Made by a program: the position numbers and the translations under genes
Assembly: GCA_030431255.1 (NCBI GenBank)
Contig: JAUIJL010000016.1
Span: 124,001-188,000 of the forward strand
Origin: Thermoanaerobaculia bacterium
GTDB taxonomy: Bacteria > Acidobacteriota > Thermoanaerobaculia > Multivoradales > J023
Length of the DNA: 64,000 nt
Direction: 5' to 3'
Notes under the pieces: generated by a model
What the model saw: the letters and a program-made list of their open reading frames with translations, nothing else
The model's database searches: none
What the model was told of the DNA's origin: nothing
Shown: piece after piece, positions 27,201 through 29,960 of the stretch
Layout of the letters: each line of letters opens with the position of its first letter
Position numbering within the stretch: position 1 is the stretch's first letter

Positions 27201-27873
27201 CTACGCCGGCACCGACGCCGAGCTCACCCGCGTGGTGTCGGACCTCTTGTCGAGCCAAGCCGTGCCCTACCTGGCCGCCTGGCGCTACAAACCCTCGGGC
27301 CTGCGCAAACGTCGAGCCTGGGAGCAGTGTTGGGACCTGCAACGCCGGGAAGACGCCATCGACGCCCGCGTCGCCCTGCCCGAAGACCACCCGGATCACC
27401 TCAAACCCGCCGACGCCGAGCGCCTCAAAGCCGAGCAAGTCGGCGACATCGCCGTGCCACCCAAATACGCCTCCTCCGACTTTAAGAGCGCCGTCTACTG
27501 GCGCTGCCGCGGCAAGCTCGACGTGCCCAAAGAACGCTTCATCGCCGTGCCCGGCAGCGAGCGCTCCACCGAGCCCACCCCGGTCTACGGCTGGGCCGGC
27601 TGGAACCCCCTGGAACGGGCCAAAGCCCTCGCCGCCTTCTACTTGGAAATGAAAGAAAACGAAGGCTGGCCCCCCGAGCGCCTCGTGCCCCTGCTCGGCG
27701 GCATCCTCGAGCAAGAGCCGTGGATCCGCCAATGGCACAACGAAGAAGACGGCCAACAAGAGCTGGCCGCCTACTTCCACACCTTCGTCGACGAAGAGGC
27801 CCGCGACCTGGGCCTCACCGTCGACACCGTAAAAGCGTGGGAGCCGCCGTCGAAACGGCGCCGGCGGCGGTGA
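24250..27873 (+). CDS. pglX: BREX type 2 adenine-specific DNA methyltransferase PglX
   Basis: DPTCGSGHFLLGGFERLL (SAM motif), VGNPPYITVKDKALNQAYR (NPPY), VIDRLRLLGDLKPLLATLEDDLRARL N-terminus; BREX context. GTG start 24250 preferred over track start 24178. Confidence 0.9.
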   Translation: MIDRLRLLGDLKPLLATLEDDLRARLGAHDELDAGWRAEYEAAREARRTGDAYAAWRDQQLTQVGVAWLLGCVFLRFLEDNALVDAPGLAGPGERLEQAVERHLLYFREHPELSDREYLLSLFEAAAGLPGASEVFDPAHNPLWRLGPSGDGARALLDFWQQRDPDSGELIHDFTDPDWDTRFLGDLYQDLSEAARKRYALLQTPDFVESFLLDRTLGPALEAFPLEEVRLLDPTCGSGHFLLGGFERLLDRWLGHAPEINVRELVQRALDAVAGVDVNPFAVAIARFRLLVAALRACEVHSLRAAPSFRLNVACGDSLLHGPRFGTGSIGATRGTQTSLLDVDPLAFVYETEDRDALRRILGRQYAAVVGNPPYITVKDKALNQAYRQKYGSCHRQYSLAVPFFERFFELATSGDASEPAGFVGMITANSFMKREFGKKLVTDFIPNLDLTHVIDTSGAYIPGHGTPTVILLGQNRSPVKANVRAVLGIHGEPSTPSDPSQGKVWRSIVGSIDEPGFENEFVSVSDKPRKLYGSHPWTLTGGGAVELKAKIESHSEQVLADLIEVVGFAAITGLDDLYIVEDSATSSRLGLHLTRSFVTGSKVRDWEILNPKVSIWPYEEDLQAIKMTEYPNILYFMWPFRTLLLSRKRFGKPFAEIDCAWFEWRELYREKFESPLSITFPFVSTHNHFVLDRGAKVFNRHAPVIKLPADATVDDHLALLGLLNSSVACFWLKQVCFAKGGDLVGREGARLSKSLWEDRYEHDGGKIGKFPLPPEKPIDRARVLDSAARSLREESPDHLMVTETPSKERLQAGEAKSDSIWHEMVFRQEELDWWCYRAYGLLDEDLNWSGDPVPLKLGERAFEIVLARKMAAGELQTEWFVRHGSQPITDLPDHWPEDYRRLVARRIQEIADNKNIRLIELPEYKRRWQRESWESQQERALQNWLLDRLETDRVWKGEPALLGVTAITDRLRAEQGFQEVVELYAGTDAELTRVVSDLLSSQAVPYLAAWRYKPSGLRKRRAWEQCWDLQRREDAIDARVALPEDHPDHLKPADAERLKAEQVGDIAVPPKYASSDFKSAVYWRCRGKLDVPKERFIAVPGSERSTEPTPVYGWAGWNPLERAKALAAFYLEMKENEGWPPERLVPLLGGILEQEPWIRQWHNEEDGQQELAAYFHTFVDEEARDLGLTVDTVKAWEPPSKRRRRR

Positions 27874-29960
27874 AAGATTTTTTCATCAGCTACAACCACG
27901 CGGATGAAGCCTGGGCGGAGTGGATAGCTTGGCAGCTTGAAGAGCGACTCGGCTACCAGGTCGAAATCCAGGCGTGGGATTCGAGACCGGGAGAAGTCTT
28001 TCCCCACAAGATGAAGACGGCCATAGAGACGAGTCAAGCGATTGTGCCCGTCCTCTCTCCGGGCTACCTCCGATCGGACTATACACATCCGGAATGGTAC
28101 GAATTCTTTTCCCGAGACCCGAACGGTGAGCTGCGATTGATCCGACCCGTCCTGGTCAAACCAGGTGGTGAGGCACTGCCTTTGCTGGGCACACGCATCT
28201 TCACTGATCTGGTCGGGAAATCGGAAGAGGAGGCCCAGGAAGCATTATGCAAGGCCTTTTCCGAGGGACGTGCAAGACCAGAAACATCACCTCCTTTTCC
28301 GGGCGCCGCTACTACATTGAGAGAAATTCCGTTTCCAGGTCGACATGCTGGAATTCGTCATCTTCCTTGGGCGAGGAACGAGAATTTCAGGGGTTATGAG
28401 TCGGTGCTTGAAGAGCTCGAAGCTTCTCTGAATCGAGGGGTGGGCAGAATCCAGCTCACGGGTTTGCCTGGGGTCGGCAAGACATCCGTCGCCCTGGAAA
28501 TGGCCTATCGAATGGAATCCAACTTGGACCTTCTCTGGTGGATCGACGGCTCCGACTCTCTAGCACTGGAAGAGGATATCCAAGCACTGAAAGGGCAAGC
28601 TGGGATCGAGGATCTGCGGCAAGATCTGAGAAACCGTGGCCGCTGGTTGATCATTTTCGATTCGGTGGAGAGTCTTGAAGAGATCGAAGAGATCTTACCC
28701 ATTGTGGACGGAGGGCTGAGCCTAGTCACGAGCAATCGTCGGGATCCGCGGTTGGAGGAGATTTCGATTGACGGTCTTGATGTAGCCACGGCGATGGAGT
28801 TGCTTTGCGTCCGTGCGGCCCGAGAAGTGGACCTCAGCGATGTCGGCAGCTCAGAGGTAGAAGAGGTAGAGCTCTTGGTGAATGAGCTCGAGCGGTTACC
28901 GATTGCCATCGAGCAGGCCGCGCTTTTCATCCGCCGTTCCGGCATGGAGATCGGCGAATATCTGGACTTGCTGCGCTCCGAGCCGGAAGACGCCTTGTCC
29001 GGAACAGCGCCATTGGACTACCGACGAGGCTTGGTCTCGGTTTGGCGCCTTCGACTCGAGAGGATAGGTGAAGAGAACCCGCCGCTCAAAGTCTGGCTAG
29101 AGTGCATGTCCTGGCTACCGTCGGTAGTTTCGCGAGATTTGAGTCAAGCGATAGCGCGGGTGCTCGTGGAGTCGTCGGAGTCGAAGTTTCAAATTGAAAG
29201 CCTGTTGGCGGAAGGCTGTGATACCTGCGCGGTTCGAGTCGAAGATGGCGGCACCATGAGCTTTCATGGCCTTTTGCATCGTTTGACTAGGCGTTTATGG
29301 ATGCGTTCTGTGGAGTCGCGAGCCGAGTGGGAAAGCCTGGAGCCCTTATCTGCGGTGACCATGGGCTTGCTCGAATACGGTAGGGAACTATTGGATGCAC
29401 CGACCCGAGAGCCCGCGGAGCGCCATTTTCTTCAGGCTGTTCAGGAGTTCCAGTTTTGCCTCGAAGAGATCGGGTGGGAGGATCGATGGCCGACGAAAAC
29501 TACAGATCTCCTGCAAGTAGCGGGAGACGTTGCTCACCAATCGGAAGAATGGAGCTTGGCTCGAAAATGGCATGAACGGGTTCTATTGGATTCAGTCGGT
29601 TTGACCCACGAGGAGAGGGTCGATTTGTTGTTGGATCTTTCGGAAGCTTCGATGGAAGAGGGCTTGCTCGAAAAGGCCGAAGTATTTCTGGATCGGTTGG
29701 AGCAAGCCGAGCAACAACGGCCCTTCCGCAAGCCCGAGACAGAAGCGATCCTCGCGTATCGGAGAGGTGAGCTGGCAGAGATGCACCAGGATTGGGACCG
29801 TGCTCGGCAGCGCTTTGAAAGTGCCTTAGCCCTAGATCGCGAGATCTCAGATGTCGAAGCACAGAAAGCCGACCACGAGGCGCTGGCTCGGGTCTTTGAG
29901 AGCTTGGGGCGATCCGAGACGGCAGCGGAACATAGCTCGGCCGCTCAACGGCTAGGGTGA
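27870..29960 (+). CDS. TIR-NB-ARC(STAND)-TPR protein
   Basis: TIR: VKDFFISYNHADEAWAEWIAWQLEE...VPVLSPGYLRSDYTHPEW; NB-ARC: LTGLPGVGKTSVALEMAYR, GRWLIIFDSVESLEE, LVTSNRRDP, ELERLPIAIEQAALFI; C-terminal TPR-like helices. GTG start overlaps the pglX TGA (GTGA). Confidence 0.87.
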   Translation: MKDFFISYNHADEAWAEWIAWQLEERLGYQVEIQAWDSRPGEVFPHKMKTAIETSQAIVPVLSPGYLRSDYTHPEWYEFFSRDPNGELRLIRPVLVKPGGEALPLLGTRIFTDLVGKSEEEAQEALCKAFSEGRARPETSPPFPGAATTLREIPFPGRHAGIRHLPWARNENFRGYESVLEELEASLNRGVGRIQLTGLPGVGKTSVALEMAYRMESNLDLLWWIDGSDSLALEEDIQALKGQAGIEDLRQDLRNRGRWLIIFDSVESLEEIEEILPIVDGGLSLVTSNRRDPRLEEISIDGLDVATAMELLCVRAAREVDLSDVGSSEVEEVELLVNELERLPIAIEQAALFIRRSGMEIGEYLDLLRSEPEDALSGTAPLDYRRGLVSVWRLRLERIGEENPPLKVWLECMSWLPSVVSRDLSQAIARVLVESSESKFQIESLLAEGCDTCAVRVEDGGTMSFHGLLHRLTRRLWMRSVESRAEWESLEPLSAVTMGLLEYGRELLDAPTREPAERHFLQAVQEFQFCLEEIGWEDRWPTKTTDLLQVAGDVAHQSEEWSLARKWHERVLLDSVGLTHEERVDLLLDLSEASMEEGLLEKAEVFLDRLEQAEQQRPFRKPETEAILAYRRGELAEMHQDWDRARQRFESALALDREISDVEAQKADHEALARVFESLGRSETAAEHSSAAQRLG

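What the first reader, a model, noticed from the sequence alone, without database searches (positions are those of the whole stretch)
27870..29960. TIR-NB-ARC-TPR immune-receptor-like gene embedded in a type 2 BREX operon, translationally coupled to pglX
Seen: order is pglW...pglX-[TIR-STAND]-pglY-pglZ-brxD-brxHI. The GTG start of the TIR gene overlaps the pglX TGA. It has an intact Walker A (GLPGVGKT) and a TIR with a Glu in the SxYxxxE position (SDYTHPEW). Known: canonical type 2 BREX is pglWXYZ-brxD-brxHI, and TIR-STAND proteins are NAD-depleting abortive defence proteins. Inference: a composite system in which an abortive TIR-STAND arm backs up or monitors BREX, for example when PglX fails or is inhibited.
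Basis: partly seen in the sequence, partly recalled or inferred. Interest (0 to 1): 0.88.

Follow-up and report, generated by a model that had tools for sequence, protein, structure and literature searches.

The report
Immune-receptor gene in BREX cargo slot
A bacterial gene resembling plant and animal immune receptors sits inside a type 2 BREX anti-phage gene cluster, in a spot that other bacteria fill with different defence genes, so it is most likely swappable defence cargo and not a dedicated BREX part.

Summary
An intact TIR–NB-ARC–TPR gene (27870–29960, GTG overlapping the pglX TGA) lies between pglX and pglY of a complete type 2 BREX locus. TIR Glu75 and Walker A are intact. The 'composite system' reading is only partly supported. 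In 27 BREX-2 loci from three phyla and plasmids, the pglX–pglY junction is a cargo slot: at least 600 bp extra in 17 of 27, at least 1.5 kb in 14. The same measure is 0 of 24 for pglY–pglZ, 1 of 23 for pglZ–brxD and 0 of 21 for brxD–brxHI. Occupants differ: PDC-M28, HEPN–MNT, Schlafen, AIPR/AbiU, helicase–REase, dGTPase, HEC-02, JukA-like. None of the others is a TIR-STAND protein, and none of 80 related TIR-STAND loci lies beside BREX. The nearest homologue is 32% identical, so no BREX-linked lineage exists in the data. Start/stop overlap at the pglX stop is common whatever gene follows. Best reading: a self-contained, probably NAD-depleting receptor riding as co-expressed cargo. A PrrC- or PARIS-like guard role is possible but unsupported. 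BREX loci with added nuclease effectors are published; a TIR-STAND occupant and a slot specific to the pglX–pglY junction were not found in the papers searched.

The parts
27870..29960 (+). TIR-NB-ARC-TPR (TIR-STAND) gene, 696 aa; TIR residues ~1-125 (catalytic-type Glu75), NB-ARC ~165-480 (Walker A 198-205, Walker B Asp264), TPR ~487-695
24250..27873 (+). pglX, BREX-2 adenine methyltransferase (NPPY motif); likely start GTG 24250 after GGGAG
24178..24207 (+). promoter-like site TTGGCA-18-GACAAT upstream of pglX (consensus match only)
29961..30095 (+). 135-nt GC-rich spacer between TIR gene and pglY; strong folding (z -1.85), no terminator-like site; a 59-nt part recurs once elsewhere in the genome at 79%
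30096..33881 (+). pglY (BrxC family ATPase), Walker A GSFGSGKS
33884..36670 (+). pglZ, BREX-2 type; ORF opens at 33758, start near 33884 is inferred from the match beginning at residue 43-52
36688..38046 (+). brxD ATPase
38043..40178 (+). brxHI helicase
15438..19640 (+). pglW, NERD + kinase, HRD...DFS
19609..22017 (-). orphan ORF U1, 802 aa, hydrophobic segment near 508-536, in the pglW-pglX gap; no homologue found
22022..23446 (-). near-orphan ORF U2 (at most 474 aa), in the pglW-pglX gap; one 35% homologue

Best explanation
The gene is a self-contained TIR-NB-ARC-TPR (STAND) immune receptor. It has been placed as cargo in the pglX-pglY slot of a complete type 2 BREX locus, where it is co-expressed with BREX from the pglX side. 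Inferred working: the TPR end senses a phage-derived trigger, the NB-ARC part binds ATP and oligomerises, the TIR part destroys or converts NAD+, and the infected cell stops supporting phage. BREX acts on incoming DNA and the receptor acts as a second, independent layer. Shown here: gene integrity, motifs, position, slot recurrence and distinct composition. Inferred: NADase activity, trigger, co-transcription, abortive outcome.
For: The slot is recurrent and specific: pglX-pglY extra DNA of at least 600 bp in 17/27 loci versus 0/24, 1/23 and 0/21 in the three downstream junctions. Slot contents are diverse and mostly recognisable defence or toxin-antitoxin families. The TIR gene has GC3 0.607 against 0.73-0.80 for the BREX genes. 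It belongs to a large family found across many phyla and otherwise not beside BREX. TIR Glu and Walker motifs are conserved. The predicted fold matches STAND receptors (Apaf-1, RPP1, Avs5). PglX distances track PglY and PglZ (r 0.91, 0.86), so the core stays together while the cargo differs. Precedent for independent cargo in BREX: BrxU (PMC12707154).
Against: No experiment on this protein was found. It departs from its relatives at 58 of 158 family-conserved columns, so activity could differ. The tight GTGA overlap and central position could mean a regulated partnership. Only 27 BREX-2 loci were compared, some on fragmented contigs.
Confidence: 0.66

Rival explanations
1. Guard or backup of BREX: the receptor senses inhibition or engagement of BREX (for example PglX bound by a phage DNA mimic) and then depletes NAD+, as PrrC guards EcoPrrI or PARIS senses Ocr.
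For: Location next to pglX with a 4-nt overlap; precedent of PrrC, and of PARIS sensing Ocr, an inhibitor of BREX (PMC12707154; PMC12839542); auxiliary effectors proposed as backups in BREX (PMC12839542).
Against: Singleton among sampled BREX-2 loci; no relative near BREX; no conserved BREX-linked lineage; overlap not specific to TIR.
Confidence: 0.17
2. Passive passenger: the receptor was captured by chance, and co-expression with BREX has no functional consequence or the gene is decaying.
For: Composition unlike the BREX genes; unique occurrence in the sample; many departures from family-conserved positions.
Against: ORF intact with the family-invariant positions kept; slot filled repeatedly by defence genes in three phyla, which chance capture does not predict.
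Confidence: 0.12
3. A non-defence signalling protein of the FxsT/FxSxx-COOH type that happens to lie here.
For: NB-ARC-TPR half matches NF040586 (FxSxx_TPR) at 142 bits and relatives are named fxsT in RefSeq.
Against: Score well below the NF040586 cut-off of 300; profile covers only residues 167-694, and the N-terminus is a TIR_2 domain; the adjacent genes are BREX, and no family hit in the stretch scanned points to an FxSxx cluster.
Confidence: 0.05

Closest known systems
Auxiliary and backup effectors in BREX loci (Rakesh & Krishnan 2026, PMC12839542)
   Same: Effector genes inserted among BREX core genes, including type 2; Schlafen, HEPN, REase and OLD modules also seen in the slot here.
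   Different: That catalogue is of nucleases and kept only neighbourhoods conserved across phyla; TIR, NADase, SIR2 and Thoeris do not occur in its main text. A pglX-pglY slot was not seen described in the sections read.
TIR-NB-ARC-TPR family (RefSeq 'FxSxx-COOH system tetratricopeptide repeat protein')
   Same: Same three-part architecture; relatives 27-32% identical overall.
   Different: Relatives not beside BREX; this protein is an outlying branch with a short TPR part.
Avs5 (SIR2-STAND) and other AVAST receptors (PMC12931631)
   Same: NADase-type effector + STAND ATPase + repeat sensor; structural match to EfAvs5 and AVAST5.
   Different: SIR2 not TIR effector; nSTAND3 not NB-ARC-like; BREX linkage not part of its description.
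PrrC in the EcoPrrI type I restriction locus; PARIS
   Same: Suicide effector coded inside or beside a restriction locus (PMC12707154, PMC12839542).
   Different: PrrC and AriB are tRNA nucleases with known triggers; no guard evidence here.
BrxU in type 1 BREX of Escherichia fergusonii
   Same: Extra defence gene inside a BREX operon, acting independently of BREX (PMC12707154).
   Different: Modification-dependent nuclease, type 1 BREX, in an A-B-C-U-X transcript.

Membership tests
Type 2 BREX | pglW, pglX, pglY, pglZ, brxD, brxHI all present | tested here: met
Type 2 BREX | Core motifs: PglX NPPY, Walker A in PglY and BrxD, kinase HRD in PglW | tested here: met
   (PglW has DFS in place of DFG)
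TIR-NB-ARC-TPR (TIR-STAND) family | N-terminal TIR domain with the conserved catalytic-type Glu | tested here: met
   TIR_2 9.6e-29; Glu75 invariant in 44 sequences
TIR-NB-ARC-TPR (TIR-STAND) family | NB-ARC/STAND NTPase with Walker A and B | tested here: met
   Walker A intact, Asp264 invariant; Pfam NB-ARC only 0.055 but fold matches Apaf-1 and NRC1
TIR-NB-ARC-TPR (TIR-STAND) family | C-terminal TPR array | tested here: met
   helical pairs 541-695 with pLDDT mostly above 90; weak TPR profile hits
TIR-NB-ARC-TPR (TIR-STAND) family | NAD+ cleavage on activation | not testable with these tools
   needs biochemistry
   1 of 27 loci; HMM search of 840 slot ORFs finds only the window's own
   overlap and no promoter-like site in 27600-30200 are suggestive only
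FxsT (FxSxx-COOH system) | Score above NF040586 cut-off of 300 bits | tested here: not met
   142 bits

The most novel reading that the evidence does not exclude
The receptor guards BREX: its TPR domain senses PglX or PglY being bound or disabled by a phage anti-BREX protein and triggers TIR-driven NAD+ loss. The pglX-pglY slot would then exist to host interchangeable guards of the BREX complex, each co-translated with PglX.
Probability: 0.15. Interest if true: 0.85.

Novelty: new variant of a known kind. Interest (0 to 1): 0.5.

Why it matters
It turns a single odd insertion into a rule that can be tested: type 2 BREX loci carry accessory defence genes at one preferred junction, directly after the methyltransferase gene, in several phyla. 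The founding Streptomyces Pgl locus also has a 6-kb gap between pglWX and pglYZ (PMC4365076). The slot can be mined for new defence genes, and the TIR-STAND occupant adds a probable NAD-depleting type to a published list that so far names nucleases.

Tried and rejected
(1) Conserved BREX-TIR lineage: rejected in this sample. (2) pglX and its cargo exchanged together as one cassette: not supported; PglX distances follow PglY and PglZ closely. (3) Mobile element carrying the TIR gene: no long flanking repeats in 27500-30500, only short chance-like matches. (4) Rfam elements in the locus: none. (5) Solved-structure relatives by sequence: none at E<=0.001. (6) Flank genes in family relatives to locate the empty BREX site: uninformative, because the tyrosinase and CHAT genes match many paralogues. 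(8) G499 and G922 have no pglY in the fetched stretch and were left out of the pglX-pglY counts; some loci end before brxHI. (9) Conserved-column departures depend on relatives chosen by similarity to the query.

Full report
Observation. The window holds a complete type 2 BREX set: pglW 15438-19640, pglX to 27873, pglY 30096-33881, pglZ to 36670, brxD 36688-38046, brxHI 38043-40178, all with strong PADLOC or NCBIfam matches. Between pglX and pglY lies an intact 696-codon gene at 27870-29960 whose GTG overlaps the pglX TGA. The alternative start at GTG 27837 is the one in the database copy. The family consensus begins MKDFFISY, which matches the GTG-27870 start.

The protein. TIR_2 covers residues 4-125. 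An alignment with 43 relatives keeps Glu75-Trp76, the Walker A Gly/Lys/Thr, and Walker B Asp264 invariant. At 58 of 158 columns conserved in at least 90% of relatives this protein differs, mostly in the NB-ARC and TPR parts. So it is an outlying member with an intact active-site signature. AlphaFold2 gives mean pLDDT 82, pTM 0.67. The fold search returns a STAND-TPR protein (6mfv), Apaf-1, RPP1, NRC1 and EfAvs5. No solved structure matches by sequence.

The family elsewhere. The nearest protein in a 5.8-billion set is 32% identical over 88% of the length. Eighty related loci from many phyla were fetched. None carries a BREX gene within the fetched flank of up to 10 kb; the only hit was a kinase resembling a piece of PglW in L053. 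In the class, relatives with partial matches at 32-46% identity exist in five other genomes. The only other genome of the genus has neither a strong BREX-2 PglX match nor this gene.

The slot. BREX-2 loci were gathered from the window's own phylum, from the phylum of Saccharothrix, from the phylum of Paucibacter and from plasmids. Distances between neighbouring core genes were measured in one way for all. The number of loci with at least 600 bp of extra DNA is: pglW-pglX 8 of 24; pglX-pglY 17 of 27 (14 at or above 1.5 kb); pglY-pglZ 0 of 24; pglZ-brxD 1 of 23; brxD-brxHI 0 of 21. In the remaining 10 loci pglX and pglY are at most about 550 bp apart, most of them within 140 bp. Slot contents: ParA-like ATPase plus unknown (G063); SF1 helicase-REase of PDC-S37 type plus ParE (G325); Schlafen AlbA_2 (G203); AIPR/AbiU, an RHH/PIN-like pair and a PDC-S01 ATPase (G176; the RHH/PIN reading is from the translated sequence only); PDC-M28-like sets (G499, Thiodictyon, Sphaerotilus; and in the pglW-pglX gap of a Streptomyces plasmid); HEPN plus nucleotidyltransferase (G981, and a matching pair in G914); HEC-02A/B (Polaromonas); dGTPase and a transposase (G569); PLD-domain protein (G797); JukA-like (Azospirillum). 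Others hold unidentified ORFs (G450, G678, G529, G625). A profile of the TIR-STAND family finds only the window's own copy among 840 slot ORFs. The founding Pgl locus has pglWX and pglYZ 6 kb apart (PMC4365076).

Coupling. An RTGA start/stop overlap at the pglX stop occurs in many of these loci with whatever gene follows, including pglY itself in uninterrupted loci. The overlap therefore supports co-expression but says nothing particular about TIR. A promoter-like match lies just before pglX (24178-24207), none within 27600-30200, and the TIR-pglY spacer has no terminator-like site. pglW is cut off from this unit by two antisense ORFs.

Origin. GC3 of the TIR gene is 0.607, BREX genes 0.73-0.80; its codon use departs about twice as far from the BREX core as any core gene. 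PglX, PglY and PglZ distances across 18 loci correlate at 0.86-0.91, so the core evolves together while cargo changes.

Interpretation. The simplest account is independent defence cargo in a preferred slot, with a probable NAD-depleting, infection-aborting action (inferred from family knowledge and motif conservation). Literature in hand supports both independent cargo (BrxU) and guard arrangements (PrrC, PARIS) (PMC12707154, PMC12839542). The guard reading lacks any comparative support here. The catalogue of BREX auxiliary effectors (PMC12839542) covers nucleases; its main text has no TIR, NADase or SIR2, and no held paper pairs BREX with 'TIR-STAND'. Papers outside the open-licence library and supplementary files were not read.

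Limits. Loci from fragmented genomes can hide longer insertions. Some slot ORFs were called mechanically, and only those with family hits or cross-locus matches are relied on.

Noticed in passing
window 19609-22017 (-) and 22022-23446 (-): Two antisense ORFs split pglW from pglX. The 802-aa one (signal-peptide-like start, hydrophobic segment near 508-536) has no homologue in a 5.8-billion protein set; the second has one 35% relative. GC3 is low, like the TIR gene.
   Followed up: partly
L129, L158, L159, L162: A PDC-M28-like three-gene module (small protein, ParA/AAA ATPase, KAP-like P-loop protein) recurs in the pglX-pglY or pglW-pglX gap of BREX-2 in several phyla.
   Followed up: partly
L171 5316-6028, L173 about 5194-5879: HEPN-nucleotidyltransferase pair in the pglX-pglY slot of two BREX-2 loci, first gene overlapping the pglX stop.
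   Followed up: partly
window 12248-15313 (-) and relatives G409, G410, G411: TPR-CHAT protein upstream of BREX; 27-34 matches per genome in family relatives, pointing to a large CHAT expansion.
   Followed up: no
window 29961-30095: GC-rich structured spacer before pglY; 59 nt of it recur once elsewhere in the genome (C50) at 79%.
   Followed up: partly
L159 30490-34651: WYL regulator, ATP-binding protein and Sir2 protein directly downstream of BREX-2 on a Sphaerotilus plasmid.
   Followed up: no
L158 17953-22109: pglX annotated in two pieces with a short ORF between on a Thiodictyon plasmid, possibly a broken copy.
   Followed up: no
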